Positions 17,901 to 57,030 of a stretch of DNA of 64,000 nt are shown here, one piece after another; the first letter of the stretch is position 1; each line of letters starts with the position of its first letter. The stretch lies in NCBI GenBank assembly GCA_035283685.1, contig DATETJ010000009.1, positions 186,001-250,000 of the forward strand, given 5' to 3'. Origin of the DNA: Candidatus Bathyarchaeia archaeon. GTDB taxonomy: Archaea > Thermoproteota > Bathyarchaeia > Bathyarchaeales > Bathyarchaeaceae. The notes under the pieces are model-generated. The model searched no databases. It was not told the DNA's origin and was given only the letters and a program-made list of their open reading frames with translations. The position numbers were made by a program, and so were the translations under genes.

Positions 17901-18704
17901 TACAACCGCTCTTGACGGTGAAATTGCGTCGTTGTGATCTTGATGTCCTGCAACGCCTATCACCGTGTTGTCTGGCGCGAGCAGACCGAAAAATCCTTGG
18001 CCTCTATCGGTTGCTGTAAGATCGTTGATTCTTGATGTGAAATCCACGATAAAGTTGCTTATCGGGGTCCACTGTGCGTGGTGTTGGCTTCCTCTGCCAT
18101 TTCCATCAGCTATCCAATAGGTTTGGCCGCTTTTGGTTGCGTCTTCGAATCTGAAGTAGTTGTTGACTGTGTGAGTTATGTTGCCGACGGCGTCTTCAGT
18201 CCATTTGGTTGGGTTTAGGCTGTTTCCGGGGAAGTTGTCGAAGAACTCGAAGCTGTCTGTTCCGTTGCTTGCATCGGATGCAATCGGGTTGTCGTAGTAC
18301 ATGTGGATGGTTGTGGTGTTGGATGCGGGAATGTTTGGCACTCTGATCCATATTGTCGCGGAAGTTGAAGGCGTGTAACTTTCGATCCAGTAGGGAATTA
18401 ATGTTGAGTTTCCGGTTTCGGTGAACCTGAGGTCTGAGAAATCGGTTTTCATGTCTGAATCGTAGTTGAGGTTGATTTTGATTTGAAAGTTGGTCAGGTT
18501 GTTTGGGTTTAGTGTGTTATCGATTGTTATGGGTCTTCTTTTGTGCCAGTCTGCGTTGTACCATGTTTGCGATTCGTTTTGAGGTTGAGCCGAGGGAACG
18601 ATTATGGATGCTAAGGGCGCTATGAGCAAGAGTGCAATTAATGCGTAGCCGATGTTTCTTTTGCGGCTGAAAAGTAAAGGAAGTTTTTCTTGCACTTTAG
18701 CCAT
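14985..18704 (-). CDS. Large exoprotein: two DUF2341 domains, Kelch propeller, CARDB domain, dockerin
   Basis: About 1239 residues from the ATG at 18704; the frame extends to 18830 but the signal segment (GYALIALLLIAPLASIIVPS) sits best behind MAKVQEK. DUF2341 domains open with WYNADWHKRRPITI (residue ~50) and WWNPVWRYRKPINL (~380), each followed by YWIESYxPSxSATIWIRVP-like strands. Residues ~500-770 are Kelch repeats (IYVFGGYYFGTG, IYLIGGYRDTVG). A CARDB-like domain precedes a C-terminal type I dockerin with two EF-hand-like loops, DVNNDRLVDVHD and DINNDGTVDNDD. The dockerin implies docking to a cohesin protein on or outside the cell; no cohesin is in the window. Probably carbohydrate-binding. 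Confidence 0.88.
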   Translation of the reverse strand: MAKVQEKLPLLFSRKRNIGYALIALLLIAPLASIIVPSAQPQNESQTWYNADWHKRRPITIDNTLNPNNLTNFQIKINLNYDSDMKTDFSDLRFTETGNSTLIPYWIESYTPSTSATIWIRVPNIPASNTTTIHMYYDNPIASDASNGTDSFEFFDNFPGNSLNPTKWTEDAVGNITHTVNNYFRFEDATKSGQTYWIADGNGRGSQHHAQWTPISNFIVDFTSRINDLTATDRGQGFFGLLAPDNTVIGVAGHQDHNDAISPSRAVVVENAASSLSLGISTYNRIYFKGVSATDSTNWRIMNNGSTLRFYDNDGPYLEAPISSSVSKLAIIAGAWEPNSYIDYVQESNMRIRKYTPLEPTSQVGFEEDYRMKAKITWWNPVWRYRKPINLTENSGTTLSNYQVKLTIDYIASKMNPDFSDLRFIDKDQTSILPYWIESAIPSVSAVVWIKVPNIPASGNQTIYMYYGNPSTNSIANGKATFEFYEDFETEYEGPSLWTDKQPLPDPRADPSAAVYNGKIYVFGGYYFGTGDVRRETYEYDPLLNSWTRKADMPSARWGPIAVEFNGLIYVFSGTVNVNEVYNPTTETWTTKNPPPFYSNQGLMAAKYGDRIHLFYNLNHYEYDPATDSYTPKAPMPTPRTWAACAVVGNRIYLIGGYRDTVGAVNANEAYDPATNSWTTQAPMPTGKYGGGREQPVINGRIYVTHGRSVEFYVSNYVYDPSTNSWEQKSPAVHPRAGSAAAVINNKMYVIGGVVIREGEIPTGLNYNEQYDPATDTWIESPWNFSDPSKVKRDPSAKYEGGYGLLVYENETSSIQFAEHPQNFSTCAVDFYWDVTDALGVNTTQPKGRLLLADANNPNNGALYYYEESGAKFYWYREGLYTLLHYGSWNTWYPITVVWSGTNSRVVINGIEHSVSAAQISSDRIYFDTMQQTKMFVDLLRVRKHASLPPAATFGAEEEPATIQSCDSSGNMKASFSAGEALYVKGSNLKENTDYKIYIVNDVAQWNDGDPIPTRITGTTSTVYSDNLGDIQPTLIWNSTLVGNYDIILDVFENGLYDSSFDALNSFEVTAPLLHDIAVINISPSETSTGRGYFLPINVTVANQGDFTEDVNLTVFANDTAVDTLSVTLGRGQSSTVNASWNTTGFSLANYVISSYATPVLGETDISDNTLNSTNVFVTIPGDVNNDRLVDVHDMWELGKAYASDKTDPEWNPNADINNDGTVDNDDIRIINGSLGQRW

Positions 18705-18915
18705 TTTGCTGCGACGCCCATCTTTTGTTTTGTCACGTCTGAATGTTGGATTCGCGTTTCGTATCCAAGTTTTCACCAAGCATGAATGACGGTAAGCTAA
18801 AAGGGTTGTGGAACTTGTAAGACGAGGCACTAGAATACTGGTATAGAGTTATCCTTTATGGCATAGACTCCAAAATGGCAATGAATCGAGTCTTGATATA
18901 TCGGGGCCAGTCTGG

Positions 18916-26444: not shown

Positions 26445-29400
26445 CTATTGATTTTGTTCGAGTTGGTCTATCCAGTCTTCGCGGCTGATGTTCCATGACC
26501 AGTGCCATGCGCTTTTGACTGTGCACTGAGAGTAGTAGAAGGTGGTTTTGTAGTAGTCGACGGCTTTTGAGAGCCAGCCTTTTGTAAGCCAGTAATCAGC
26601 TTGGGCAAGGTATTGGTCTATGTATGCGATTTCGTTCCACAGCCAAGGCGCGTATTTACCTCTTGCCTCTGCGTCTTGTATCGCTGCAACAGCGAGCATC
26701 TTTTCGGCGTATGCTTCAGACTTGGCTATTTGGGTCATTTCGTTGTTTATGGCTGTTAGTTGTTGAATGATCTGGTTGGCGAGGTCGCTGGGCATTTGGC
26801 CGTACTTAACCCAGTTTTGCAGGTCCTTTATGAGATACTCTAGTCTGAGGACGCCTGATTTTAGGGTGTTGAGGCCTTCGACTTTGTCATCGAATCCTGG
26901 TCTGACTGTTTCGAGATAGTTTAGTATGTCGCCAACATTGATCTCAGTTTTGCCGAGATCACTCATTATGCGTTCGAACTTGTACTGGTTTATGTTTCCG
27001 CTTTCGTACAGGGAGGTGACGTATTCTCTTAGACTTGTGATCATGCTTGACAGAGGATGTATGTGGGAACCAACGATTAAGTCTGCGTCTGCCATGCCTA
27101 AGACAGGGGGGTCGGCTTGAGACGTTGCTATTAGGGTGAATCTGTAACCACCATAGGCTGCCGTGTACGGTGCTGAAATTGTAAAAGACACCGTTTCAGT
27201 TTGGTCTGGACTAAGTGTGACTGAATGTGGCATCGAGCACCATGCGGGATTTATTCCGTACAGTGCAAGGTTGTATGTATCTTCGGTGTTTCCTAGGTGA
27301 TGGATGACGATGTTATAGGTTGCGGTTTGTCCTAGAAAGGCGAAAGCCGCTTCTGGGTCGATGGAGATTTCTACTCCTGTGTTGATTGTTAATGTGTCTG
27401 TTCCAGTGTCGCCGTTGTTGTCTGTGATTCTTAGGGTGGCTGTGTATTTTCCAGCTTCAGAGTATGCGTGGGTTGGCGTCAACGTGCCAGTGGCTGTTGT
27501 GCCGTCGCCGAAGTTCCATTCAATCGTGTGGGTGTCTACCACCCCGGGATCTGTGAAGCTGCCGCTAAAGTGGACTTCACTGCCCGGAGCCACAAGTTGG
27601 TCTGGTCCGGCGTTAGCTGTCGGTGCTACATTGGAGACGGTGGCTGTGGCTGTTGCGGTGTCGGTATATGTTCGGGCTCCGACTTCAACTTTGACTGTGC
27701 CTGTCCAGTCATCGAGCCACATGTGAGACGCGGTTGGACTGCTTGACCAGTCGGTGTCCCATGTTCCGTCGTTTTCGAAGTCCCATCTGTACGTTATTGG
27801 GTCACGGTTTGGGTCGTTGGAGCTGCTTGCGTCGAAGTTGATTGTTGCGCTCTCTGTTGCTGCGTAGGGTCCTCCTGCATTAGCATTGGGTGGAAGGTCA
27901 ACTCCAAAACTACTTGACACGGTTGTTATTGGCGCTGATGGAACTGCGTTCACCAGCGTGTCTTTAACCAGCCATGAGAACCGAGGTGCGGGTGTAGGCC
28001 AGATTTGTAAAGGCTCGTGCTTACGATATCTTGTGAGTACTGCGATTGAACAGCGGTCTGTCAAGGTGGCTTCTTCGGTCCGCGACATTTGGAAAGTGTA
28101 GGTTCCCCCTTTTCTGCTGTCGAAGACGAACACTGTATCCTCGACCCCGTCGTCGTCTATGTCAATGTTCCAGAAGCTGGCTCCAGGAATTTCGTTATAT
28201 ATATCTGTGACCATTAAGTCGACTTCGATAGGTATTTGAAGAGTTCTAAGAAAGCGACGGAGATGCCTATACATGCCGATTCTCTGACCGTCGGGGTCTG
28301 TCATGAACAACTGCTCCTGGCCTAGTACAACCACTACCATGTCGGGTTGCCCATCAAGCCAACACCAGAAGTACGGGCCGTTAGGTTGGGCGGAGTCAAA
28401 AAAGTCTCCTGTGTCAATCATTGCATAGTTTATTGCGGAATTGTCGTGGATTGTTGCCTGCCACTGAGAGAACGAGTCTGTAGGCGCTGTCTCTACGTGA
28501 GTTGGAGGCCGCCCATAATCTACAGCTGCTTCATGTGGTCCCCAAGATGCCTGGGTGAGATCTAACGCAACTGTTGCGACGATTAAAACGTTTATCCCAT
28601 AGTCGCTGTTCTCGTACCATCCTTCGGCAAGAGTGTATGTCCCAGGGTCAGTGGGAACGGTGAAGGGCCCAAGCCAGACATGACCCAGCGCGTCATCTGG
28701 TCCATAGTCGTCGTCGCGTCCGCGTGTGTGCAGCCTCACTGGCTCTCCAGGCGTGACAGGAATGCTGTGCCAGAGATCTCCGCCGCCTGGAATGTTGAGG
28801 GCTAGTACGCCGTCTCCCCAACCGTAGTTTTCGTCGGGATGCAGTGGATAGTAGCTTCCAGGGCCTGGTTCACGATGTCGAGGTACGTACATGTTGCCGT
28901 GTCCTTCTGGGCCTTGGCCGTCTCGCCCGTCGCTGACAAAGGTTTCGATGTAAAGCTCCACATCTCCGTCGCCTGAGGTCCTTTTGACTTTGACGTATCT
29001 CACGATGAAATCCACTACGGCCCCGTAGTATGCGACGCCTGTGCCAGAAAGGGTGTAATGGAAGACTTGAGGCGCCCCTTCCTGCCTAAGGTAAATTGTA
29101 TCGTCGTCCGCATTCGTCAATCCCATCAGATTTCTGACTTGACACGAGACGGTCTTCAAATCGTCCCCTGCTGAAAGAGTCCAAGGCTTCGTGTTAGAGA
29201 TTGTCTCCCAATTGTCGTGCCAAGCTTCGTTTTCGTTTCTGAATCTGCACTCCAAGTCGCTGGCTAGTTCAGCTGCTCCCACGCTATATTGCAGGTTAAG
29301 TTTAACCCATCTCCAATGGGCTTCATCGTCTCCGCTATAGTCTGAGATTGTCACTTCCACCTGAGGCCAGTTGACCGATTCATAGAAGATCTGGTAGAGA

Positions 29401-30407
29401 GTCGCAATTGCACGTATGCCGTAGACCATCACATACTTGGCGATCTCGGAAAGTTGAAAGTCACGGTCGTTGTCATCATCGTCCAGTGTGTCACCCCAAT
29501 ATCCGTGATCGTTGTCCTCCAGATCTCCTATATATACGGGGGAAGATGGCCAAGCCCTATATCCGCCCATCCAGACTTCAGGGTCATCCTTGTCGCCGTC
29601 GTAGTCGTCTGAAGCGAAATAGTCGGCGTGCTGATTTGCGGTGTACATCAGATAGTACACTGCAGCAGCCCAATCTCCATTCCGCATATTTTGTTCAACA
29701 GTCTCGGGAAACTTGACCAAGCCACCTCTTACTGGAGACAAAAGCCACGATGGAGAGTCGACATACCAATTGGCATAAGCATTTGTCTCGTAAATCCAGT
29801 GTTCGTAGCAGTCGTCTCCCCCAGGCAGATTGACGCCCTCATAAGACACATGGAAGTCTTCATGAACATGCGCAGGAATCATGTCTCCGATGAGGTGAGC
29901 CACATGACCCAGATACTCGTAAGCCATAGACTTGTCATTGTCAACCAAGTAAGCAACACGAGCGTAGTGAAACAACGCGCTCGCTTTTTGGTAGGCGTTG
30001 GGGAATTCGTCTGGTATCTCACCGTATATTCGTTCCAAAGATTGTTCCAAAGCTTCGGGAAGACCTTTTACCGGATCATTTGGACCCCCGTCAGCATCCC
30101 AAAAGTGCGGAATAGCGAGCACACCCATTATATCATGTGTTAAATGGGAGTAGACGTGATCGAGTTCATCCTCATGAGTGGCTCCAGCCCGTATCTGACC
30201 AATGAAGGTGTCAATCTCATTGCGCATCGATGAAAGCGAAGGAACAAGGCTCGCAGCCTGCGAGCACATCCACGGATGAATCTGCTTGTGTTCAAGAGCA
30301 GAAACACTTGGCGCTTGAAACGGCAGCGAAGCGAACGAAACCAGAGCAACAAGCAAAGCAATTTTTGTCAATCGAGCAATTTTCTTAGAGTTCAACACTT
30401 TTTTCAC
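26445..30407 (-). CDS. Secreted zinc-dependent phospholipase C-like protein with PKD domains
   Basis: 1320 residues from a GTG at 30407 behind GGAAAGA. A signal peptide (IALLVALVSFASLPFQAPSVSA) precedes a zinc-dependent phospholipase C domain with the metal ligands in order: IHPW, LAIPHFWDADG, HVAHLIGDMIPAHVHED (HxxxD plus PAH) and EHWIYETNAY (HxxxE). Residues ~300-830 are beta-rich and unassigned. PKD domains start near 839 (NAGGPYAATESATINFDASS) and 929 (NAGPDQLVAPGSEVHFSGS). The last 200 residues are helical. No membrane anchor, so freely secreted or bound by the helical tail. It fills the segment between the tRNA-Asp fragment and the intact tRNA-Asp. Confidence 0.88.
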   Translation of the reverse strand: MKKVLNSKKIARLTKIALLVALVSFASLPFQAPSVSALEHKQIHPWMCSQAASLVPSLSSMRNEIDTFIGQIRAGATHEDELDHVYSHLTHDIMGVLAIPHFWDADGGPNDPVKGLPEALEQSLERIYGEIPDEFPNAYQKASALFHYARVAYLVDNDKSMAYEYLGHVAHLIGDMIPAHVHEDFHVSYEGVNLPGGDDCYEHWIYETNAYANWYVDSPSWLLSPVRGGLVKFPETVEQNMRNGDWAAAVYYLMYTANQHADYFASDDYDGDKDDPEVWMGGYRAWPSSPVYIGDLEDNDHGYWGDTLDDDDNDRDFQLSEIAKYVMVYGIRAIATLYQIFYESVNWPQVEVTISDYSGDDEAHWRWVKLNLQYSVGAAELASDLECRFRNENEAWHDNWETISNTKPWTLSAGDDLKTVSCQVRNLMGLTNADDDTIYLRQEGAPQVFHYTLSGTGVAYYGAVVDFIVRYVKVKRTSGDGDVELYIETFVSDGRDGQGPEGHGNMYVPRHREPGPGSYYPLHPDENYGWGDGVLALNIPGGGDLWHSIPVTPGEPVRLHTRGRDDDYGPDDALGHVWLGPFTVPTDPGTYTLAEGWYENSDYGINVLIVATVALDLTQASWGPHEAAVDYGRPPTHVETAPTDSFSQWQATIHDNSAINYAMIDTGDFFDSAQPNGPYFWCWLDGQPDMVVVVLGQEQLFMTDPDGQRIGMYRHLRRFLRTLQIPIEVDLMVTDIYNEIPGASFWNIDIDDDGVEDTVFVFDSRKGGTYTFQMSRTEEATLTDRCSIAVLTRYRKHEPLQIWPTPAPRFSWLVKDTLVNAVPSAPITTVSSSFGVDLPPNANAGGPYAATESATINFDASSSNDPNRDPITYRWDFENDGTWDTDWSSSPTASHMWLDDWTGTVKVEVGARTYTDTATATATVSNVAPTANAGPDQLVAPGSEVHFSGSFTDPGVVDTHTIEWNFGDGTTATGTLTPTHAYSEAGKYTATLRITDNNGDTGTDTLTINTGVEISIDPEAAFAFLGQTATYNIVIHHLGNTEDTYNLALYGINPAWCSMPHSVTLSPDQTETVSFTISAPYTAAYGGYRFTLIATSQADPPVLGMADADLIVGSHIHPLSSMITSLREYVTSLYESGNINQYKFERIMSDLGKTEINVGDILNYLETVRPGFDDKVEGLNTLKSGVLRLEYLIKDLQNWVKYGQMPSDLANQIIQQLTAINNEMTQIAKSEAYAEKMLAVAAIQDAEARGKYAPWLWNEIAYIDQYLAQADYWLTKGWLSKAVDYYKTTFYYSQCTVKSAWHWSWNISREDWIDQLEQNQ

Positions 30408-30675
30408 TCTCTTTCCTTTTTTTTAGCACGCTCACCTGAGAGAAACAAGCGAAACATTCCCCGTTGCCAGTCAGTAGTCACCAATAATGCAGGTGTCTTT
30501 TGACACGATTTTCCCATAACAGTCAACCCGTTTCCTACATTTCTCTCTTAAGAGCGTCCAAAAATCATGATTTAGGACATTGTGCATATATGCCTTATGG
30601 AAACATGTTCTAGAACATCAAAGTCGAACAAATTAATCTCCCAAATGAATCATAATACACAACCACGTGAAATTA

Positions 30676-30812
30676 TGGCGCCCTGGCCGGGATTTGAACC
30701 CGGCTCTTGTCACAAAGCATATTTTCTCTGTGATGTCCAGCGGGCGACAGCCGCTTATACTATTCCGGCATTGAGGAAGTTCCTCACTGTGACCGGACTA
30801 TACTACCAGGGC
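30676..30812 (-). tRNA. tRNA-Asp (GTC) with two apparent introns, CCA encoded
   Basis: Acceptor strands GCCCTGG (30806-30812) and CCAGGGC pair fully; discriminator G and CCA are encoded. The T-arm is CCGGG-TTCAAAT-CCCGG and the anticodon arm AGCGG-CTGTCGC-CCGCT, anticodon GTC. The gene is 137 bases instead of ~77. About 28 extra bases sit in the D-loop (30765-30792, TCACAG...CCGG with a TGAGG/CCTCA hairpin flanked by CCGG pairs), and about 30 in the variable loop around 30705-30735 (an 8-bp TCACAGAG/CTTTGTGA hairpin). Both fit bulge-helix-bulge introns at non-canonical sites; exact borders are uncertain by a few bases. Confidence 0.85.
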
Positions 30813-30919
30813 TGCCTTGTCGGGCCAGAAGCGCCGTTTGCAATAATGAAAAACATCGATTAATTAAGCTTTCTTGAACCACACAACAACTTCTGAAAGA
30901 ACTCAGCCTCTGAACCGAA

Positions 30920-31440
30920 ACCACCTCGGTATTATTACTTGTTCTAAGCCGAAGTTAATAACATCTGAAACAGAAACCAGCCCCACACGCCGTCCTTGAC
31001 GAAACCATGCCTAAACAGTGACGAGACCTGACACAAGACAACGCGCAAACAGAACCCAAAACACCATACAAAAACCCGAACAGACTCCAAAGCACAATGC
31101 CCAACCTTGTTGATGTCACTAGGAACAGTTTGACGACGACATCCACACAGCCTTTAGCCGCTAAATGCACTACAAAATGGTAGAAGAAAGTATAAGGGGA
31201 TTAGCGCCTTCTTCTTTTGAAATTCGTTTTCCCGCAACCGCTCAACATGCCCGACAGCCACGCATAACTATGTTAAATGCCACGCTAAACTATGTTGAAC
31301 CGCACCACAAAACACGCGCAAACAGCCCGGGAAACACCATACAGAACCAGCAACAAACCCCAAAACACAAACAGAAAAGTCTAGCTTTAACACTGAAAAA
31401 TTTTTTCTGCACTCATACTAACCCTACTCCCACACGTTAA
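30920..31440. repeat. Long intergenic repeat, copy 1 (5' side of tRNA-Asp)
   Basis: Shares with 52397-52850 a ~65-base block (30925-30987, including GTTAATAACATCTGAAACAG) and a ~260-base block (from 31177: GGTAGAAGA..., CTTCTTCTTTTGAAAT, two 22-bp iterons at 31259-31302, GAAACACCATACAGAACCA, GAAAAATTTTTTC, ACTCATACTAACCCT). The ~190 bases between the blocks are not alike. No convincing ORF on either strand. The remaining 30440-31509 sequence outside the tRNA and this repeat shows nothing recognisable. Confidence 0.75.
31259..31302. repeat. Two 22-bp iterons (copy 1)
   Basis: Units at 31259-31280 and 31281-31302, both of the form CACGC.TAACTATGTT.AA, with a partial third (CACCACA...) after them. 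The same period and placement occur at 52678-52721. Confidence 0.6.
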
Positions 31441-31509
31441 ACATTAACAAAAGTCCATCACTTTCTCCATATTCCGAATCAGTATTCCTATGTCGCAAAC
31501 TATTAGCCC

Positions 31510-31779
31510 ATGAAAACATCATCTAAAACACCCTCAAACACAACACAAAAAGGAGACCTGAAACAAAAAATGAACGAAGCACTCTACATGGCATGTAAAG
31601 AATTAATCGACGACGCAAAAAACGGCAGCAGCGACAAAGTCTTCAAAGAAATCACACTCGAAATCCTAGCCCGAGCCAAAAACATACTCACTGATGTGCA
31701 ATTCAGAGAACTCACACAATACGCAGCAGAAAAAATGAAAGAAAGAACCGAAATCACCCAAGCCACACTACCATACTAG
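31510..31779 (+). CDS. Small helical protein of unknown function
   Basis: 89 residues, mostly charged amphipathic helix (MNEALYMACKELIDDAKNGS, VFKEITLEILARAKNILTDV, FRELTQYAAEKMKER) after a Thr/Ser-rich start. Adenine/cytosine-rich coding sequence like the whole patch to its right. It is the first gene after repeat copy 1. An inner start at the ATG 31570 is possible. No family recognised. Confidence 0.55.
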   Translation: MKTSSKTPSNTTQKGDLKQKMNEALYMACKELIDDAKNGSSDKVFKEITLEILARAKNILTDVQFRELTQYAAEKMKERTEITQATLPY

Positions 31780-31790
31780 ACAATAAGCCA

Positions 31791-32399
31791 CTATAGCTTA
31801 TCAAAACCCATCAAAAACAATTCACTGCTCGTTTTCCGACTAGCCTTAGGCTTCAAAAACCGAACCACACGAAACTCCCGACGCATATCAGAAACAAAAC
31901 CATCCAACATATCACCCTGAAAAACCTTAAAAAAAACATTCCCACCCCTCCTCAACACACACGCAGCCACATACAACGAACGCCGAGCCAAATCCAACTG
32001 CCTCGCCTGATCAACCTCCCAAATACCTGACACATTAGGCGAAACATCAGACACCACCACATCCGCTAAGCCATCCGGCAAAAAACCACGAATAGTATCA
32101 ACAACCTCAGGCTCAGTCACATCAGCAATAATGGACCGGGAATTCTCAGCCTCAAACGGCTCAACAGACCGGACATCCACACCCAAAACAAAACCACGCT
32201 CACCCACAGCCCACAACGCCGCCACCATCCAACCACCAGGCGCAGCGCCTAAATCCACAACCACATCACCCCGCCTAATCAAACGGTACCGCTCAACAGC
32301 CTCAGACAACTTAAACGCAGCACGAGAACGAAGCTGCTCCTCCTTAGCCCGACGATAAAAATAATCCCTCTGACGCTCACGCGCCCAACTCTTAGGCAC
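31791..32399 (-). CDS. rlmE: 23S rRNA (uridine-2'-O) methyltransferase, RlmE/FtsJ family
   Basis: 202 residues. SRAAFKLSEAVERYRLIRRG (catalytic Lys) and VVVDLGAAPGGWMVAALW (SAM motif I) open the domain; VVVSDVSPNVSG (catalytic Asp), FFKVFQGD (Lys) and KTSSELFLMG (Glu) complete the K-D-K-E tetrad of FtsJ 2'-O-methyltransferases. It probably methylates the A-loop uridine of 23S rRNA. Two bases separate it from the TFE-beta-like gene upstream. Confidence 0.92.
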   Translation of the reverse strand: MPKSWARERQRDYFYRRAKEEQLRSRAAFKLSEAVERYRLIRRGDVVVDLGAAPGGWMVAALWAVGERGFVLGVDVRSVEPFEAENSRSIIADVTEPEVVDTIRGFLPDGLADVVVSDVSPNVSGIWEVDQARQLDLARRSLYVAACVLRRGGNVFFKVFQGDMLDGFVSDMRREFRVVRFLKPKASRKTSSELFLMGFDKL

Positions 32400-32401
32400 G
32401 G

Positions 32402-32779
32402 CTAGGCGTCACCAATAGGAACCAACGGCTCCCCAGCCAAAACATGAACCCAATCAGTCAAAGAGGCACAGACAATCGGAGAAACCGCGCCAAAAGCCCC
32501 ACAACGCGGATCATTACTACACATGAGACACGGACACTCAATAATCGAATTAATCGACGACGGCTGACGCTTCGGAAACAACCGATAAGTCCAACGCCCA
32601 CCACGAAGCTCACGCTCACGCCGCACCAAACCCTTAACCTCCAACTTCAAAGCAATCCGCGAACCCTCACGACTACTAGCCCCCAACCTACGCCACAAAT
32701 CAGACTGCAACACACCCTGACTCCGAGTATGCGAAATAAAATACAAAGCCTTGTACTCCAAATCATCACGCTTAGGCAT
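32402..32779 (-). CDS. TFE-beta / RPC39-like winged-helix Fe-S protein
   Basis: 125 residues. The N-terminal winged helix (GVLQSDLWRRLGASSREGSR...LVRRERELRGGRWTYRLFP) is followed by a Cys cluster CPCLMCSNDPRCG...C (Cys 82, 84, 87, 93, 104). This is the layout of archaeal TFE-beta and the eukaryotic Pol III subunit RPC39, where the Cys hold a 4Fe-4S cluster; TFE-beta pairs with TFE-alpha to help open promoters. Assignment is by pattern only. Cotranscribed with rlmE. Confidence 0.72.
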   Translation of the reverse strand: MPKRDDLEYKALYFISHTRSQGVLQSDLWRRLGASSREGSRIALKLEVKGLVRRERELRGGRWTYRLFPKRQPSSINSIIECPCLMCSNDPRCGAFGAVSPIVCASLTDWVHVLAGEPLVPIGDA

Positions 32780-32802
32780 AGATCAAACGAACCCTTACAA
32801 TC

Positions 32803-32855
32803 TTCCCCTTAAATCTACAGACATATATGTATACAACAATAGAATAAAAATCTAC
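32803..32855. promoter_or_regulatory. Divergent promoter region, TFE-beta-like / kae1
   Basis: On the minus strand GATTTAAGGG (32803-32812) sits ~25-30 bases from the TFE-beta-like start, so that mRNA may be leaderless. On the plus strand AT-rich ACATATATGTATAC (32821-32834) and GAATAAAAATC (~32843-32853) are candidate box A elements for kae1. ATATAT is palindromic and could serve either direction. Confidence 0.4.
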
Positions 32856-32893
32856 GTGTTTCCACCCAAAAAAACCATGGAGCCAACCGCAAC

Positions 32894-33916
32894 GTGCCCA
32901 AAGAGCCCATACACATACTTGGAATAGAATCCACAGCCGACGACTTCAGCACAGGCATAACCACATCCCAAGGCAAAATCCTAGCCAACATCACCAGCAC
33001 CTTCATACCAACCCAAGGCGGCATCCACCCAAGAGAAGCAGCAAGACACCACGCCGAAGTAGCCGGCGAAGTCATACACAACGCACTAAAAAAAGCCAAA
33101 ATCCACCCCAACCAAATCAAAGCAGTAGCCTTCTCACAAGGACCCGGACTAGGACCATGCCTACGCACAGGCGCCACAGCCGCCCGCGCCACAGCTACAT
33201 ACCTGCACATCCCACTAGTCGGCATCAACCACAGCATAGCCCACATCGAAATAGGCAAACTAATCACAGGCGCAAAAGACCCAGTCACACTATACGTGTC
33301 AGGCGGCAACACAATCATCTCAGCCTACGAAGACAGATACTACCGCGTATTCGGCGAAACCCTAGACATCGCAGTTGGCAACTGCCTCGACGTATTCGCA
33401 CGAGAAGCAGAACTAAAGCAAAGCCCAGGCAGACCCTTCGGCGCCATCATAGAGGAACTAGCGAGAGCAGGCAAAACTTTGGTTCCGCTCCCGCTCACAA
33501 TCAAAGGCATGGACCTTTCTTTCAGCGGCTTGCTCACAGCCGCAGTTCAAGCCTTGCGCAGCGCAAAGCACGGTCTGGGAGATCTTTGCTTCAGCCTTCA
33601 AGAAGTCGCGTTCTCAATGCTAACCGAAGTGACAGAGCGCACCTTGGCGCACACAGAAAAACCCGAGGTCCTATTAACAGGCGGCGTCGCAGCCAACAAA
33701 CGACTGCAAACCATGCTGAAAATCATCGCAAAGGAACACAACGCTCGCTTCAACGTCGTGCCCAAAGAATACGCCTTAGACAACGGAGCCATGATTGCAT
33801 GGACAGGCGCCTTAACCTACAAAAGCGGAATCACCACTCCAATAGAGAAAAGCATCGTCAAACTGAAATGGCGACTAGACCAAGTTCCAGTACCGTGGGT
33901 CGAAGAGGCAGAGTGA
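32894..33916 (+). CDS. kae1: KEOPS subunit Kae1 (t6A37 threonylcarbamoyltransferase)
   Basis: 340 residues from a GTG. ILGIESTADDFSTGI (ASKHA phosphate 1), HPREAARHHAEVA and INHSIAHIE (metal-binding His), VSGGNTIISAY and LLTGGVAANKRL identify Kae1/TsaD, which transfers threonylcarbamoyl to A37 of ANN-decoding tRNAs. Nine bases separate it from bud32, so the two KEOPS genes are an operon but not fused as in Methanocaldococcus. The first half is extremely A+C rich on the coding strand; the second half is normal. Confidence 0.95.
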   Translation: MPKEPIHILGIESTADDFSTGITTSQGKILANITSTFIPTQGGIHPREAARHHAEVAGEVIHNALKKAKIHPNQIKAVAFSQGPGLGPCLRTGATAARATATYLHIPLVGINHSIAHIEIGKLITGAKDPVTLYVSGGNTIISAYEDRYYRVFGETLDIAVGNCLDVFAREAELKQSPGRPFGAIIEELARAGKTLVPLPLTIKGMDLSFSGLLTAAVQALRSAKHGLGDLCFSLQEVAFSMLTEVTERTLAHTEKPEVLLTGGVAANKRLQTMLKIIAKEHNARFNVVPKEYALDNGAMIAWTGALTYKSGITTPIEKSIVKLKWRLDQVPVPWVEEAE

Positions 33917-33925
33917 AAAAACTCA

Positions 33926-34561
33926 ATGGTGCTCATTAGAAAAGGCGCCGAAGCCGACCTCCACCTCGAACAGTGGCACGGTCACAAAGTCGTAATGAAA
34001 CGGCGACTCCCAAAAGCATATCGACTGCCACAACTTGACCTAGCTGTAAGAACCCAGCGCACACTTCGCGAACCCGCACTCATTCACCGAGCCAAAGAAG
34101 CCGGAGTCCCAACACCCACAATCTACATGATAGACTTAGCAGAGTCAAACATCATCATGGAATACGTCGAAGGCAAACAGGTCAAACAGGTCTTGAACAC
34201 CTTGCCACCCGAGGAAAAACTACGCTTATGCCGCCACATCGGCACATTAATCGGACGCCTCCACAAACACGGAATAATACACGGCGACTTAACCACATCA
34301 AACATGATTCTCACATCTTACAGGAAAATCTACCTTGTAGACTTTGGACTGGGCGAACACTCCGAGGAACTGGAGATTCGCGGAGTCGACCTTCACCTAA
34401 TGAAAAGAGCACTTCAAAGCACACACCACAGATTAGCCAAAAAGTGCTTCGAAGCCGTGACAACCGGATACACTGAGACCGTCGGAAAGGAAACCGCAGC
34501 CAAAGTCCTCGCAAAAATCCAAGAAATCGAGCGCAGGGGACGTTATATTGAGGAAAGGTAA
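33926..34561 (+). CDS. bud32: KEOPS subunit Bud32 (piD261/Bud32-type kinase)
   Basis: 211 residues. An atypical small protein kinase: LIRKGAEADLHL (short P-loop), VVMKRRLPKAYR (Lys), EYVEGKQ hinge, HKHGIIHGDLTTSNMI (catalytic HGD.TTSN) and IYLVDFGLGE (DFG). In KEOPS it acts mainly as an ATPase that supports Kae1. Its 3' end overlaps the next gene by 14 bases. Confidence 0.94.
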   Translation: MVLIRKGAEADLHLEQWHGHKVVMKRRLPKAYRLPQLDLAVRTQRTLREPALIHRAKEAGVPTPTIYMIDLAESNIIMEYVEGKQVKQVLNTLPPEEKLRLCRHIGTLIGRLHKHGIIHGDLTTSNMILTSYRKIYLVDFGLGEHSEELEIRGVDLHLMKRALQSTHHRLAKKCFEAVTTGYTETVGKETAAKVLAKIQEIERRGRYIEER

Positions 34562-35141
34562 AATAGCATTCTTCGTCACAGGCAACGTGGGCAAGTTTCA
34601 CGAAGCACGAGCCGTGCTCAAAGAGTTCGACATTTCAACCGCCATGCTCAGCATGGAAACCAAAGAGATCCAAGCCGATGATATAGACGCAATTGCCAAA
34701 GCCAGCGCGTTAGAAGCAGCAATGAAATCAAAAATGCATATCTTCGTCGAAGACGCTGGACTCTTCATCCAAGCCCTCAACGGTTTCCCAGGACCCTACT
34801 CCTCTTACGTTCACAAAACACTGGGCAACGAGGGCATTTTGAAAGTGATGAAAAACACCATCAAACGAGAGGCATACTTTCACTCCATTGTGGCTTTTTG
34901 TGACTCTGGCAAATCAAGCTCGCTTAAATGTTTCAGCGGCAGAATCGACGGAAAGATAACCGCTAAAGAGCAAGGAAAACATGGCTTCGGCTTCGACCCC
35001 ATCTTTGCACCATCAGCCCAACTCGACAGGACTTTCGCAGAAATGACGCAGCAAGAAAAGAACAACCACTCCCACAGGGCTCAAGCGCTGCGAAAATTCG
35101 GAGCTTGGTTTCGTCAAAAGTACACTCGATCTAAACTCTGA
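34548..35141 (+). CDS. rdgB: XTP/dITP diphosphatase (RdgB/HAM1)
   Basis: 197 residues from a TTG inside the end of bud32. IAFFVTGNVGKFHEA (the TxNxxK motif), IFVEDAGLFIQALNGFPGPYSS and KHGFGFDPIFAP are diagnostic of the Ham1 family, which removes non-canonical purine triphosphates such as ITP and XTP. Third gene of the kae1-bud32 operon. Confidence 0.93.
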   Translation: MRKGKIAFFVTGNVGKFHEARAVLKEFDISTAMLSMETKEIQADDIDAIAKASALEAAMKSKMHIFVEDAGLFIQALNGFPGPYSSYVHKTLGNEGILKVMKNTIKREAYFHSIVAFCDSGKSSSLKCFSGRIDGKITAKEQGKHGFGFDPIFAPSAQLDRTFAEMTQQEKNNHSHRAQALRKFGAWFRQKYTRSKL

Positions 35142-52058: not shown

Positions 52059-52095
52059 AGAACAATCGTTCCATACATAGAACAATAGTTCCATA
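52056..52095. promoter_or_regulatory. Tandem 20-bp operator at the nucleotidyltransferase start
   Basis: CATAGAACAATCGTTCCATA (52056-52075) and CATAGAACAATAGTTCCATA (52076-52095): two adjacent 20-bp copies with one difference, each containing GAAC-N4-GTTC. One copy ends on the start codon. Likely bound by the gene's own winged helix. Confidence 0.65.
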
Positions 52096-52104
52096 AGAAA
52101 CTTG

Positions 52105-52182
52105 TGGTGGACGGGGCGGGATTTGAACCCGCGGCCTCAGCGATGCCAACGCTGCGATCATACCAAACTGATCTACCCGCCC
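52105..52182 (-). tRNA. tRNA-Ala (GGC), CCA encoded
   Basis: GGGCGGG...CCCGTCC acceptor (one G-U pair), D-arm GATC/GATC, anticodon arm CAGCG-TTGGCAT-CGCTG (anticodon GGC), T-arm GCGGG-TTCAAAT-CCCGC, discriminator A, CCA. No intron. Its 3' end is at the lower coordinate, facing the accessory array that carries copies of that end. Confidence 0.96.
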
Positions 52183-52396
52183 GACTGTTGGCATACGCAT
52201 ACCACGTCAAAAAACTATTAAACTTTACCTAACAACTTCCCAAAGCCTCCGAGAACCAACACAATTGCTGTATATGTAAACTGCTCCAAGCGAAAACCAA
52301 CAACCCATGAACATGCACACGTCGCTGCAAGGAACGCTAACAAACATGAAAGTAGTAGTCAACACACACGCGGCGCTGACTACTACTTCTGAGCAA

Positions 52397-52850
52397 AGCC
52401 AGCTCGGTGTTATTACCAATTCTAAGCGAAAGTTAATAACATCTGAAACAGAAACCACTCCCACAACATCACCTCAACATTCAAGAAGTTGTTGCGGCAA
52501 ACCCTTCAACGTCAACAACAACACCCACACAAACAGTCTGCGCTTGCATGTTCAACTACAACTGTCCAAGCCGCCCGCAGCCCAAACCACAACACGGTAG
52601 AAGAGGGCGCTAAGCGATTGCTCCCTTCTTCTTTTGAAATCTCTTTTCCCGCAGAACCGTTCTACATACTCGAACACCACGCATACCAACATTAAACGTC
52701 ACGCATGCCAACATAGAACGTCACGCAAGAACACGAGCCAACAGCGCCAGAAACACCATACAGAACCACGAACAGCCCCAGAGAAACAAACTGAAAAGTT
52801 CAACTTTCACCGCAAAAAAATTTTTCCAGACTCATACTAACCCTCTTTCC
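52397..52850. repeat. Long intergenic repeat, copy 2 (5' side of tRNA-Ala)
   Basis: Same two blocks as copy 1 (30920-31440), in the same orientation and at a similar distance from a tRNA 5' end, including iterons at 52678-52699 and 52700-52721, CACCATACAGAACCA, an AAAAAAATTTTTCC tract and ACTCATACTAACCCT. The 52183-52396 sequence before it shows nothing recognisable. No convincing ORF. Confidence 0.75.
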
Positions 52851-52918
52851 CACCAAAACGAGACAACACCCCTTCAACATAAAACCACAAATACGCCGTT
52901 GATCCTAACCTTTCAACC

Positions 52919-54979
52919 ATGAACCCCGAACTCAAAAAACTCGTCAAAGAGGAACTCTCAGGCGAAAAAGCCAAAGAACACGTAGCACAAATCAGCCAGT
53001 ACCACCGCATCCAAGCCTCCACAATGTTCCACCAAGCCGCAGAACACGTAAAACAGCAACTACTAGACATAGGCTTACAGGACGCCAAAATCGAACAGTT
53101 CACATCTGACGGCGCCACAAAATACTGGACCCACATATCACCCATGGGCTGGGAAGCCAAAAGCGCCGAACTACGCCTAATCGAACCAGAACAGCAACTC
53201 ATTGTCCGCTACGCTGACATCCCCACATCCCTGCACACATGCAGCAACGCCACACCACCCGAAGGCACAACAGCCGAACTAATCGACGTAGGCATAGGCA
53301 CAAAACCCGAACACTACGAGGGCTTGGACGTCAAAAACAAATTCGTACTCGCAACAGGACGCGCCCGAACAGTACACGAGGAAGCCGTCTACAAACACGG
53401 AGCCGCAGGCGTCATAACCGACACACTCGCACAGGAAATGAAAAACGTACGCGAAAGCATAGACATACCCGACGCCCACGGATACCAAGGAATATGGCCC
53501 ACAGCCGACATACTAGATAAGATCCGCTTCGGCTTCTCACTCTCAAAACGCCAAGGAAACCACCTCAGAGCCCTACTACGCGACAAAAAAACCGTCAAAC
53601 TCCGAGCCAAAGTCGACGCCCGCCTATTCCCAGGAAACATGGATGTAGTCGTGACCACCATTCAGGGCTCAACCAAGACCAACGAGGAAATCTTCATAAT
53701 AGCCCACCTCTGCCACCCCCAACCCAGCGCCAACGACAACGCCTCAGGAAGCGGACTCCTCATCGAAATCGCCCGAACAATACAAACCCTAATCGACACA
53801 AACAAAATACCCAGACCACAACGAACCATACGCTTCATATGGGTCCCAGAATTCAGCGGCACCATAGCCTACCTACACCAACACCAAGACCTACCACAAC
53901 ACCTCATCGCAGGAATCAACCTAGACATGGTAGGACAAAACCAAGAACAATGCAAATCCACGCTGAACATAGACCGCACACCCGATTCCCATCCCTCATA
54001 CCTCAACGACCTAATCCTAAACCTAACAGAGGACACCATCAAAGAATTCGACCACGACACAGACTTCGGCACATCCTCAACCTTCCGCTACGCCGAAAGC
54101 ATGCACAGCGGCGGAAGCGACCACCACATATTCGTAGACTCCACCATAGCCGTACCCTGCATCATGCTGCTACAATGGCCAGACCTATTCTACCATACCA
54201 GCATGGACACGATAGACAGAGTAAGCCCAGAAAGCCTCAAACGCGTAGGCTGGATAACCACAGTAGCCACGCTCACATTAGCCAACGCAGACATCGACAC
54301 AGCAGTCTACCTACTAAACCAAACCTGCAGCCGCGGACTAACCCGAATACAAACAGCCCAACACCAAGCAATCCAAGAACTCTACGAAAAAAAGCACGAC
54401 CCAAAAACCAAAACAAACCAGCCAGAACACGCCACAACCCTAACCAAAACAGCCAAACACCACAAAAACAAAATCGAACACATCACACAACGAGAAACCC
54501 AAGCACTGCACTCAGTCAAAAAACTCGCAAACACCCCGGAACTCGACACCTTGATCCAAAAATTCACCAAAAACATCGAAGAGGCAGGAAACCAAGCAAT
54601 CGCAAGGGTTCATGAAACAGTATTATTCATAAGCAGGTCACTCGGCATCACCCTGCCAGCCCAAATCGCAGAGACAGACACTGAAAAACAGGCCAAAACC
54701 ATAGTGCCACAACGCCTAGTCAAATGCACCTTATCCATGGAAACCTTCAAAAAACTCCTCGGCGACGAACCATACAAATGGTACGAAGAAACCAGCGAAA
54801 AAGACACCAAACTCGGCTTGAAACAATTCGAAATCCTCAACTTCATGAACGGCAAACGAAACCTCCACGACATAATCCAAGCAGTCTCAGCAGAATACGG
54901 AGAAACCAACATGGAACACGCCCTGAGATTCATCAAAGACCTAGAAAAAACAGGATTCGCAACGCTGCAAACCAGTTGA
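52919..54979 (+). CDS. M28-type zinc aminopeptidase with PA-like insert
   Basis: 686 residues. Zinc site of M28 peptidases: FIIAHLCHPQPSANDNASGS (His, bridging Asp), FIWVPEFSG (catalytic/ligand Glu), INLDMVG (Asp) and FYHTSMDTIDRV (His). A PA-like domain (KFVLATGRARTVHEEAVYKHGAAGVITD) lies before it, and a ~200-residue helical C-terminus with a winged-helix-like end (FEILNFMNGKRNLHDIIQAV) after it. No signal peptide, so cytoplasmic. The coding strand is more than 80% A+C in places. Confidence 0.86.
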   Translation: MNPELKKLVKEELSGEKAKEHVAQISQYHRIQASTMFHQAAEHVKQQLLDIGLQDAKIEQFTSDGATKYWTHISPMGWEAKSAELRLIEPEQQLIVRYADIPTSLHTCSNATPPEGTTAELIDVGIGTKPEHYEGLDVKNKFVLATGRARTVHEEAVYKHGAAGVITDTLAQEMKNVRESIDIPDAHGYQGIWPTADILDKIRFGFSLSKRQGNHLRALLRDKKTVKLRAKVDARLFPGNMDVVVTTIQGSTKTNEEIFIIAHLCHPQPSANDNASGSGLLIEIARTIQTLIDTNKIPRPQRTIRFIWVPEFSGTIAYLHQHQDLPQHLIAGINLDMVGQNQEQCKSTLNIDRTPDSHPSYLNDLILNLTEDTIKEFDHDTDFGTSSTFRYAESMHSGGSDHHIFVDSTIAVPCIMLLQWPDLFYHTSMDTIDRVSPESLKRVGWITTVATLTLANADIDTAVYLLNQTCSRGLTRIQTAQHQAIQELYEKKHDPKTKTNQPEHATTLTKTAKHHKNKIEHITQRETQALHSVKKLANTPELDTLIQKFTKNIEEAGNQAIARVHETVLFISRSLGITLPAQIAETDTEKQAKTIVPQRLVKCTLSMETFKKLLGDEPYKWYEETSEKDTKLGLKQFEILNFMNGKRNLHDIIQAVSAEYGETNMEHALRFIKDLEKTGFATLQTS

Positions 54980-54994
54980 GAAACAGAGAGACAT

Positions 54995-55531
54995 ATGAAA
55001 ATCGAAATCGCTGAAATTTCCCGAAACGACAAACCCCTACCCAAACTGAAATACGAGTACACCACAAACAGCCACTACCAACTCACGATAACCCAAACAA
55101 CGAAATCCTGGACAGCAAAACTAACCCTCAAACCTCTGCCCAAACCACTGAAAAAACAGTTCGAAAGCGAATTATTCGCAGACTACGTGGAAGAACCCAG
55201 AGCCTTCACAGCAATCCTCAACCACGAACCAGTCGGCTGGATCGAAATCGGCTACCACAAATGGAACAACCGCATGCGAGTCTGGCAACTCCTAGTAAAA
55301 GAGGCACACAGAGGCAAAAGTATCGGCACACAACTACTCAAGCACGCCATCAAAACAGCCAAAGAGAAAAGCGCAAGAATGCTAATCCTAGAAACACAAA
55401 GCTGCAATGCGAAAGCCATAGGTTTCTACCTTGCACACGGATTCCAACTCATCGGCTTCGACACCACAGCCTACTCAAACCACGACATCGAAAAAGGGGA
55501 AATCCGCCTCGAACTAGGTCTCAAACTCTAA
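54995..55531 (+). CDS. GNAT acetyltransferase
   Basis: 178 residues. VWQLLVKEAHRGKSIGTQLL is the acetyl-CoA loop and NAKAIGFYLAHGFQLIGFDT motif B. Fifteen bases after the M28 peptidase, so cotranscribed. Substrate unknown. Confidence 0.83.
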   Translation: MKIEIAEISRNDKPLPKLKYEYTTNSHYQLTITQTTKSWTAKLTLKPLPKPLKKQFESELFADYVEEPRAFTAILNHEPVGWIEIGYHKWNNRMRVWQLLVKEAHRGKSIGTQLLKHAIKTAKEKSARMLILETQSCNAKAIGFYLAHGFQLIGFDTTAYSNHDIEKGEIRLELGLKL

Positions 55532-55654
55532 CTCGTCGTCACTAGGCATGAGCTATGACGACACCCGCACAGAAAGTCGCCTAGATACAAAAACACCTAA
55601 ACCAAAGCTTACACAAAGTTAACATCGAAAACCAGCCTGGGATGTCCAGCAGAC

Positions 55655-55966
55655 ATGGCACACATCAAAGCTGGCGAAGCAGTCTCAACTGGAGTAGGAC
55701 TAGGCCTTGGACTAGCAATTTCAAGCTACATGTTTCAAGCCCTGAAACAGCCAGAAAGCACAGCCAAACCGCTAGTCGTGTGTCTCAATTGCAGACGCAG
55801 AAATTCGATGGAAAACAAATACTGCTGGCAATGCGGGCAATCCCTCTATCCGCTACCCACAACACAATGCGCTAAGTGCAAAGCCAAAGTACCTTCAATG
55901 AAATACTGTGGAAACTGCGGTGCACAACTAAGAAAAGTGAAACAAAAAAAGGATGTTCGCGGCTAA
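55655..55966 (+). CDS. Small double zinc-ribbon protein
   Basis: 103 residues. A hydrophobic N-terminal stretch (GVGLGLGLAISSYMFQAL) precedes two zinc ribbons: CLNCRRRNSMENKYCWQCG and CAKCKAKVPSMKYCGNCGA. The ribbons are of the same type as those of the SPFH protein on the opposite strand, whose stop codon it overlaps by four bases. Confidence 0.75.
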   Translation: MAHIKAGEAVSTGVGLGLGLAISSYMFQALKQPESTAKPLVVCLNCRRRNSMENKYCWQCGQSLYPLPTTQCAKCKAKVPSMKYCGNCGAQLRKVKQKKDVRG

Positions 55967-57030
55967 GCTAGTTTTTCGCCGCAGTTGCCGCAGAACTTCG
56001 TTCCCGCCGAGTTCTTCGTGTTGCATTTTGGACAGTTGACTTCACTAGCAACCATAGGCTTGCCACAGTTACCACAGAACTTCAAATTCGCTGGAACTTC
56101 AGCCTTGCAGTGAGGACACGTAGCCTTCGCCGGTGGCGCCAAACTGCCTCCGCAGCCACCGCAGAACTTGACATTCGCTGGGTTCTTGTTGCCACAACTT
56201 GGACAGACCACTACCTGCTGCGCTGCCTGACCTTGCTGCATCTGCTGAGCCATCATAAACGGCATAGTCAACCCGATACCTGCACCCACGCCCGCTGCAG
56301 CTGCGCCTCCCCCTTGACCGTCCTTAAGCTCCGCCGCGGTTTCCTTCATGTACTGCATAGCCATCGCCTGTGCACCCACGCCAGACGCAAACCTTCTAGC
56401 CTCTTCAGGAATCTTAACGCCTTCAAACACGCAATCAACGATCTTCAGGCCAACTCTAGCCCCTTCGTCGCTGATTTTCAAAGCCACCTTATCCGTAGTC
56501 ACGTCTACATTCTTGACCACCGTGGAAATGTCGTGGTTGCCAAACTCATTTATGATACGCTCGTTAACAAAGCCTCTAATGTAGTTCTCAACATCCCGGG
56601 AATTGCTCGCCGACCGATTACCAAAGAACTCCACAACGAAAAGCTTCGGATCCTCAACCTTGTACAGGAGATAACCAAAGAATCCAAGCTCAGCCTGATA
56701 CTTTATGTCTCCACTGGGCGCCGAGTAAGCGTTCCCCCCAAAATTACCCCCGAACTGACTGCTACTGACAAAAACAACCTCGCACTCATAGATGTCACCT
56801 ATCAAACCTATCTTACGCAAAGCGTTAGTCAACAACGGAATGTTATTGCTTGTAATAGTGTGCCGTCCAGGTCCCATGACATCGTAAGCTTTGCCATCTC
56901 TGAAAAACACAGCCCACTGATTCTCCTTTACCGTCACTTGGCTTCCTGCTTTCAACGACAAATTCGGGAATCTGTAGGCGATATCCTCTGCGCCGGCATA
57001 GTCCCATGCAACTTTCTCAATTAATGGCAT
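55963..57030 (-). CDS. SPFH-domain protein with three C-terminal zinc ribbons
   Basis: 355 residues. The N-terminal SPFH domain (LKAGSQVTVKENQWAVFFRD, VMGPGRHTITSNNIPLL) belongs to the YdjI/'virion core protein' branch; a Gly/Ala/Gln-rich linker (~235-275) leads to ribbons CPSCGNKNPANVKFCGGCGG, CPHCKAEVPANLKFCGNCGK and CPKCNTKNSAGTKFCGNCGE. No membrane helix, so probably peripheral and oligomeric. First identified part of a three-gene minus-strand operon with the next two. Confidence 0.85.
   Translation of the reverse strand: MPLIEKVAWDYAGAEDIAYRFPNLSLKAGSQVTVKENQWAVFFRDGKAYDVMGPGRHTITSNNIPLLTNALRKIGLIGDIYECEVVFVSSSQFGGNFGGNAYSAPSGDIKYQAELGFFGYLLYKVEDPKLFVVEFFGNRSASNSRDVENYIRGFVNERIINEFGNHDISTVVKNVDVTTDKVALKISDEGARVGLKIVDCVFEGVKIPEEARRFASGVGAQAMAMQYMKETAAELKDGQGGGAAAAGVGAGIGLTMPFMMAQQMQQGQAAQQVVVCPSCGNKNPANVKFCGGCGGSLAPPAKATCPHCKAEVPANLKFCGNCGKPMVASEVNCPKCNTKNSAGTKFCGNCGEKLA

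What the first reader, a model, noticed from the sequence alone, without database searches (positions are those of the whole stretch)
30920..31440. Long repeat with 22-bp iterons sits on the 5' side of both intact tRNAs
Two copies (30920-31440 and 52397-52850) share ~65-base and ~260-base blocks, paired 22-bp iterons at equal positions, and an A/T tract next to ACTCATACTAACCCT. Each is 100-220 bases from the 5' end of the tRNA that anchors a fragment array. Conserved iterons beside an A/T tract suggest protein binding: a recombination accessory site, a replication element, or a non-coding RNA/promoter. The association with tRNA arrays is seen; the function is not.
Basis: partly seen in the sequence, partly recalled or inferred. 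Interest (0 to 1): 0.7.

Follow-up and report, generated by a model that had tools for sequence, protein, structure and literature searches.

The report
Archaeal repeats starting one-sided skew zones
The two repeats are members of a family of about 100 patchwork DNA elements scattered between the genes of a Bathyarchaeia archaeon, and most of them sit at the start of a one-directional stretch of 2-4 kb in which one DNA strand has become extremely rich in A and C whichever way the genes point, suggesting that these elements launch a process that repeatedly mutates or exposes one strand.

Summary
In detail: two copies share modules in one order, with 22-bp iterons, an A/T tract and ACTCATACTAACCCT, at 113 and 220 bp from tRNA-Ser(GGA, intron) and tRNA-Ala. 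tRNA linkage is secondary. The genome (Bathyarchaeia, 2.28 Mb) carries about 99 such intergenic loci; 10 of 41 tRNAs lie within 300 bp of one (about 3-fold over an intergenic null), but about 90% of copies are not near a tRNA. Each copy is a mosaic of stem-loop modules in fixed order, then iterons, then an A/T-tract module D. No homologue in 80 relatives, phages or plasmids; no REP-type Y1 transposase and no reverse transcriptase in the genome. The unexpected finding: elements start unidirectional zones of extreme strand asymmetry. Fourfold-degenerate sites on the element's strand reach about 85% A+C just downstream, decaying over 2.5-4.5 kb, equally for genes pointing either way, with almost nothing upstream of isolated copies. 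Inside one ribosomal-protein operon the skew falls from 0.93 to about 0-0.36 with distance, so expression level is not the cause. Relatives sampled lack such zones. Best reading: origin- or nick-like polar sites from which one strand is repeatedly left single-stranded (or miscopied). The zone is shown; the mechanism is inferred.

The parts
30925..30982 (+). module A, copy 1 (GGTATTATTACT..TTCTAAGC..AAGTTAATAACATCTGAAACAGAAACC)
31045..31130 (+). D'-like internal module, copy 1
31109..31159 (+). module B, copy 1 (GTTGATGTCAC..GGAACA..TGACGACGACATCC)
   Evidence: 38 copies in fetched loci
31182..31215 (+). module C stem-loop, copy 1 (AGAAGAAAG...CCTTCTTCT)
   Evidence: 71 copies in the genome with model R1; hairpin scan of the family
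31258..31301 (+). two 22-bp direct iterons, copy 1
   Evidence: sequence, module alignment
31318..31422 (+). module D, copy 1, with A/T tract 31396-31406 and ACTCATACTAACCCT 31411-31425; sharp 3' end of the repeat
   Evidence: about 50 near-complete copies in the genome; alignment
30675..34866 (+). A/C-rich strand-asymmetry zone opened by copy 1 (peak 0.47), including the minus-strand FtsJ gene 31791-32399
52350..52388 (+). hairpin U, copy 2 (AAGTAGTAGTC...GACTACTACTT)
52402..52458 (+). module A, copy 2
52478..52577 (+). hairpins H3 and H5, copy 2
52594..52660 (+). module C stem-loop, copy 2 (AGAAGAGGG...CCCTTCTTCT)
52678..52727 (+). 22-bp iterons, copy 2 (2.3 units)
52737..52844 (+). module D, copy 2, with A/T tract 52814-52825 and ACTCATACTAACCCT 52830-52844
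52059..55967 (+). A/C-rich strand-asymmetry zone opened by copy 2 (peak 0.47)
30676..30812 (-). tRNA-Ser(GGA) with 43-nt intron, 5' end 113 bp from copy 1 (neighbour, not part of the element)
   Evidence: ARAGORN with intron option
52105..52182 (-). tRNA-Ala(GGC), 5' end 220 bp from module A of copy 2 (neighbour)

Best explanation
Shown: the repeat belongs to a family of about 99 intergenic mosaic elements, found so far only in this genome (ordered stem-loop modules, then 22-bp iterons, then an A/T-tract module), and most of these elements mark the starting points of unidirectional 2-4.5 kb zones in which the element's strand is extremely A+C rich, independent of gene direction. Inferred: the elements are polar, origin-like or nick-like sites. 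A host factor binds the iterons and stem-loops, and DNA is repeatedly opened from the element in its own 5'-to-3' direction (5'-to-3' removal or unwinding of the element strand, or a stalled or repaired fork coming toward the element). The complementary strand is then left single-stranded for a few kb or recopied inaccurately. Its C-to-T and A-to-G changes make it G/T rich and the element strand A/C rich, as on the light strand of vertebrate mtDNA. The length decay of the skew then reflects the processivity of the opening.
For: Skew at fourfold sites downstream of D-ending elements: 0.71, 0.69, 0.57, 0.49, 0.40, 0.23, 0.13, 0.02 from 0-250 bp to 2.5-3 kb; at 0-250 bp A .43 C .43 G .07 T .07. 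Within 2 kb downstream, co-oriented genes +0.50 and oppositely oriented genes -0.48 on their own strand, i.e. the same DNA-strand effect. Isolated full elements: about 0 upstream until roughly 200 bp before module A, then sustained downstream. 66 of 70 elements have positive downstream skew; circular-shift null on C9 mean -0.002, sd 0.026, observed 0.179, above all 5000 shifts. Amino-acid composition is pushed in opposite directions by gene orientation (p 3e-9). Element copies themselves deviate mostly G-to-A (0.107 per G) and T-to-C (0.072 per T) on the element strand. Within the ribosomal-protein operon on C4, skew is .93.88.71 in L22, S3, L29 next to the element and about 0-0.36 further on in the same operon. 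Iterons, A/T tract and stem-loops are parts of known origins (established knowledge). mtDNA precedent for A/C- vs G/T-rich strands by single-strand exposure and deamination of C and A: PMC3269012.
Against: Three of ten strong zones on C9 (peak at least 0.35) have no detectable element, and 14 of 70 elements show 0.1 or less downstream, so the element is neither strictly necessary nor sufficient today. A simple rightward fork or displacement of the element strand would predict the opposite sign, so the geometry needs resection/unwinding of the element strand or a fork moving toward the element; neither was tested. A and C are raised equally, whereas spontaneous deamination favours C-to-T; a miscopying process is equally possible. 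No initiator or nickase was identified. One of two cdc6 genes lies directly downstream of an element, which may be coincidence. Everything rests on one genome (a 12-contig assembly, 98% complete).
Confidence: 0.42

Rival explanations
1. Passive BOX/BIME-like non-autonomous mobile repeats. The zones are produced by something else, and the elements insert, with strand preference, at places where DNA is already single-stranded (as single-strand transposons do).
For: Modular mosaic, purely intergenic, no strict orientation preference to genes, not found in relatives, internal module losses, same-strand clustering (13 vs 2 neighbour pairs within 2 kb), and strong zones without an element.
Against: Elements sit at the start of zones rather than throughout them, with onset within about 200 bp in isolated copies. 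No Y1/HUH transposase of the REP type in the genome. No target duplications or terminal repeats recognised by eye. Copies are about 70-85% identical, so no sign of recent movement.
Confidence: 0.25
2. The elements are strong promoters (module D: A/T tract plus a conserved 12-nt initiator-like motif downstream), and the asymmetry is transcription-associated mutation along a few kb of mostly non-coding transcript.
For: D ends with an A/T tract and the strongly conserved ACTCATACTAACCC; many D copies lie 60-200 bp upstream of a co-oriented gene; gradual decay resembles attenuation; ordinary genes have a weak same-sign skew (+0.06).
Against: Elements without D still open zones, longer ones. Skew collapses within a single ribosomal-protein operon. 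Transcription usually makes the non-template strand G/T rich, the opposite sign (general knowledge). Genes antisense to the putative transcript include housekeeping genes such as ftsJ. Many D copies are followed by a TATA-like box of the next gene (by eye).
Confidence: 0.2
3. A structured non-coding RNA family.
For: Many conserved hairpins with 9-12 bp stems.
Against: No Rfam match. No compensatory changes; GT and AC mismatches in stems about equal (20 vs 23). Modules are dispensable and rearranged.
Confidence: 0.05
4. An accessory site for site-specific recombination at tRNA genes.
For: About 3-fold enrichment near tRNAs, mostly on the 5' side.
Against: About 90% of copies are far from tRNAs; no recombination module recognised at the copies examined.
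Confidence: 0.03

Closest known systems
BOX elements of Streptococcus pneumoniae (PMC3049150)
   Same: Intergenic, about 100 copies, modules of about 50 nt in fixed order with optional modules, stem-loops.
   Different: No sequence relation claimed; longer, with iterons and an A/T-tract module; associated with polar strand-asymmetry zones, of which I know no report for BOX.
REP/BIME palindromes with RAYT transposases (PMC3733652, PMC2817692)
   Same: Mosaics of imperfect palindromes in intergenic DNA.
   Different: Hairpin units are all in one orientation and fixed order; no Y1 (IS200/605-type) transposase in the genome.
Vertebrate mitochondrial control region / OH-OL strand displacement (PMC3269012)
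   Same: A/C-rich versus G/T-rich strands anchored at an initiation region; stem-loop and repeat anatomy.
   Different: About 100 short zones on a cellular chromosome, each decaying over 2-4.5 kb; the sign relative to element polarity does not match simple rightward displacement of the element strand.
Iteron-type and Orc1/Cdc6-type replication origins
   Same: Direct repeats next to an A/T-rich tract; one copy lies immediately upstream of one of two cdc6 genes.
   Different: About 99 copies; no canonical ORB motif identified (not searched formally); the second cdc6 locus has neither element nor skew.

Membership tests
REP/BIME (RAYT-mobilised) | RAYT / Y1 transposase (PF01797) in the genome | tested here: not met
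   0 hits in a 98%-complete genome; 5 of 14 control genomes ring
REP/BIME (RAYT-mobilised) | 20-40 bp palindrome tagged with GTAG/CGTC at one end | tested here: inconclusive
   Stem-loops present but no consistent GTAG/CGTC tag seen by eye; not scored formally
BOX-type modular repeats | Interspersed modules of about 50 nt in fixed order with variable module content | tested here: met
BOX-type modular repeats | Sequence homology to boxA/boxB/boxC | not tested
   BOX sequences were not compared
Structured ncRNA family | Covarying base pairs / strand-specific GU tolerance | tested here: not met
   20 GT vs 23 AC mismatches, no double changes; no Rfam match
Leader of one duplicated gene | Homologous gene downstream of every copy | tested here: not met
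   Different downstream genes: 89-aa orphan, M28 peptidase, ribosomal L22, Cdc6 paralogue; also convergent 3' ends
tRNA-linked recombination site | Copies found at tRNA genes | tested here: not met
   about 10 of 99 loci within 300 bp of a tRNA; enriched about 3-fold but not defining
Retroelement / diversity-generating retroelement target | Reverse transcriptase (PF00078) in the genome | tested here: not met
   0 hits
Replication origin | Iterons plus A/T-rich unwinding region | tested here: met
Replication origin | Initiation of synthesis at the site / initiator binding | not testable with these tools
   needs marker-frequency or single-strand mapping, binding assays
Replication origin | Strand-skew inflection of the usual sign at the site | tested here: inconclusive
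   A strong polar skew starts at the element, but A/C-rich in the element direction, opposite to a simple rightward fork

The most novel reading that the evidence does not exclude
A cellular chromosome carries about 100 dispersed polar initiation elements (stem-loops, iterons, A/T tract), each driving a local, unidirectional, strand-specific mutational process over 2-4.5 kb. It is strong enough to bring neutral sites of the element strand to about 85-95% A+C and to shift protein composition by gene orientation: a mitochondrion-like single-strand exposure system scattered along an archaeal genome.
Probability: 0.45. Interest if true: 0.92.

Novelty: categorically new. Interest (0 to 1): 0.78.

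Why it matters
Strand asymmetry in prokaryotes is normally read as one chromosome-wide signature of replication. Here it is cut into many short, polar, sequence-anchored zones, so the process that makes it can be mapped to defined DNA elements. If elements cause the zones, this is a new kind of cis-acting site (origin-, nick- or resection-like) and a natural strand-specific mutation system that reshapes protein composition by gene orientation. Even if the elements are only passengers, the zones mark where and in which direction this archaeon's DNA is left single-stranded or miscopied.

Tried and rejected
Single gene leader: rejected (different genes, convergent neighbours). tRNA-specific role: rejected as primary. 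Non-coding RNA by covariation: no support. REP/RAYT: no Y1 transposase. Retro-mechanism (RNA copied into error-prone cDNA): attractive for sign and polarity but no RVT_1 gene. Cassette idea (A-B-C ... gene ... D flanking genes as in an integron): only 4 of 39 D-less loci have a lone D within 4 kb downstream on the same strand, above chance (0.4) but not general. Rightward replication fork or R-loop on the element strand: wrong sign of skew. Expression level: rejected by the ribosomal-protein operon. Homologues elsewhere: none convincing in relatives with DNA or the module-A model, none in genome contigs and viral contigs by exact pattern, phages or plasmids. Undetected elements at the element-less zones: sensitive module search found none.

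Full report
WHAT WAS CHECKED. The two repeats are real, at the stated places. They lie 113 and 220 bp from the 5' ends of tRNA-Ser(GGA), which has a 43-nt intron and is found only with ARAGORN's intron option, and tRNA-Ala(GGC). The window is a piece of a 2.28-Mb, 12-contig assembly. Its FtsJ protein is closest to Bathyarchaeota.

COPY NUMBER AND ANATOMY. A BLASTN search of the assembly gave 69 pieces. Profile searches of the fetched loci gave modules A (49), B (38), C (51) and D (41), nearly always in that order and on one strand. Genome-wide models give 71 C, about 50 near-complete D and 70 A (a capped list), which group into 99 loci. Reading all copies side by side shows an ordered mosaic: hairpin U (GAAGTAGTAGTC...GACTACTACTTC), module A, optional hairpins H3/H5 or a D'-like block, module B, hairpin C (AGAAGAAGG...CCTTCTTCT), two to three 22-bp direct iterons, then module D with an A/T tract and a sharp end at ACTCATACTAACCC. 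None of the clusters examined overlaps a predicted gene; flanking genes point either way. Stems are conserved as sequence, not by compensation: mismatches are GT 20 and AC 23. This argues against selection on an RNA strand.

RANGE. No match in 60 relatives by DNA beyond one 24-bp chance-like hit, and none in 80 relatives with the module-A model, 26 of them of the same family. No other genome of the same genus was available. None in genome contigs or viral contigs by exact pattern (records of this genome or very near ones may be left out there), nor in phages or plasmids. The genome has no Y1 transposase and no reverse transcriptase.

tRNA LINK. Ten of 41 tRNA genes have a copy within 300 bp, eight on the 5' side. 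The intergenic null expects 3.4 (p about 0.0025). The link is real but covers only about 10% of the copies.

THE ZONES. While calling genes I found that third codon positions fall into A/C-ending and G/T-ending classes. In the window, (A+C)-(G+T) jumps to 0.39-0.41 at the two repeats and decays over about 4 kb. This generalises: averaged over all elements the skew on the element strand is highest at the element and decays downstream. At fourfold-degenerate sites it falls from 0.71 to 0.02 over 3 kb for D-ending elements, and from about 0.45 to 0.02 over 4-5 kb for D-less ones. Genes pointing either way show the same DNA-strand effect: +0.50 for co-oriented, -0.48 on their own strand for opposed genes. 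Isolated full elements have no skew upstream until about 200 bp before module A. On contig C9 no circular shift of the element positions out of 5000 reached the observed value. Protein composition is pushed in opposite directions by orientation (PTNKQH 29% vs 21%, far genes 25%; p 3e-9). Four relatives sampled over 400 kb have no 800-bp window above 0.3, against 1.8% of the sampled C9 windows.

WHY IT IS NOT EXPRESSION OR CODING. In the ribosomal-protein operon on C4 the element lies just upstream of L22. L22, S3 and L29 have skews of .93.88 and .71, while the following genes of the same operon are at about 0-0.36 (L14 itself located, the other names by eye from the protein starts). Opposed genes such as ftsJ inside the zone are skewed by DNA strand, not by coding strand.

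MECHANISM (INFERENCE). Depletion of both G and T on the element strand equals C-to-T and A-to-G on its complement. The deviations between element copies show the same transitions, G-to-A 0.107 and T-to-C 0.072 per site. This is the pattern explained in mitochondria by long single-strand exposure and deamination (PMC3269012). The sign means that the complement of the element strand is the exposed or miscopied one. A rightward fork or a displaced element strand would give the opposite sign. What fits is removal or unwinding of the element strand from the element onward, or a fork moving toward the element and stalling there. The origin-like anatomy (iterons, A/T tract, stem-loops) supports a protein-bound initiation site. 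No factor was identified.

LIMITS. Some strong zones have no detectable element (C9:267862, 308084, 530481). Fourteen of 70 elements have little or no zone, and lone C modules have little (mean 0.11). Causality is therefore not proven: the elements may make the zones or may have inserted at their starts. Gene calls are from my own coding-potential script, not a standard annotator; promoter and terminal-repeat impressions are by eye. All evidence is from one assembly without close relatives. In the held literature I found no report of such zones in archaea; that library is incomplete.

Noticed in passing
window 30676-30812 (-): tRNA-Ser(GGA) with a 43-nt anticodon-loop intron, missed by the default tRNA scan and by the Rfam tRNA model.
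   Followed up: yes
G000:C2:561341-563023 (L128): An element lies directly upstream of one of the two cdc6 genes and opens a skew zone (0.34, 0.26); the other cdc6 locus (L129) has neither.
   Followed up: partly
G000:C9:267862-272448, 308084-313134, 530481-532711: Strong A/C zones without any detectable element; the second appears by eye to start with a NurA-like gene.
   Followed up: partly
L011 (G000:C2:480041-485819): Genes opposed to an element have G/T-driven proteins very rich in V, G, L, F and W, showing how the skew reshapes protein composition.
   Followed up: partly
window 14985-18830 (-) and 26445-30407 (-): Very large proteins: one with Kelch repeats, DUF2341 and dockerin, one with PKD domains.
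   Followed up: no
G000:C9:294-303 kb, C2:479-491 kb, C4:13-26 kb: Clusters of three to four elements; neighbours within 2 kb are nearly always on the same strand (13 vs 2).
   Followed up: partly
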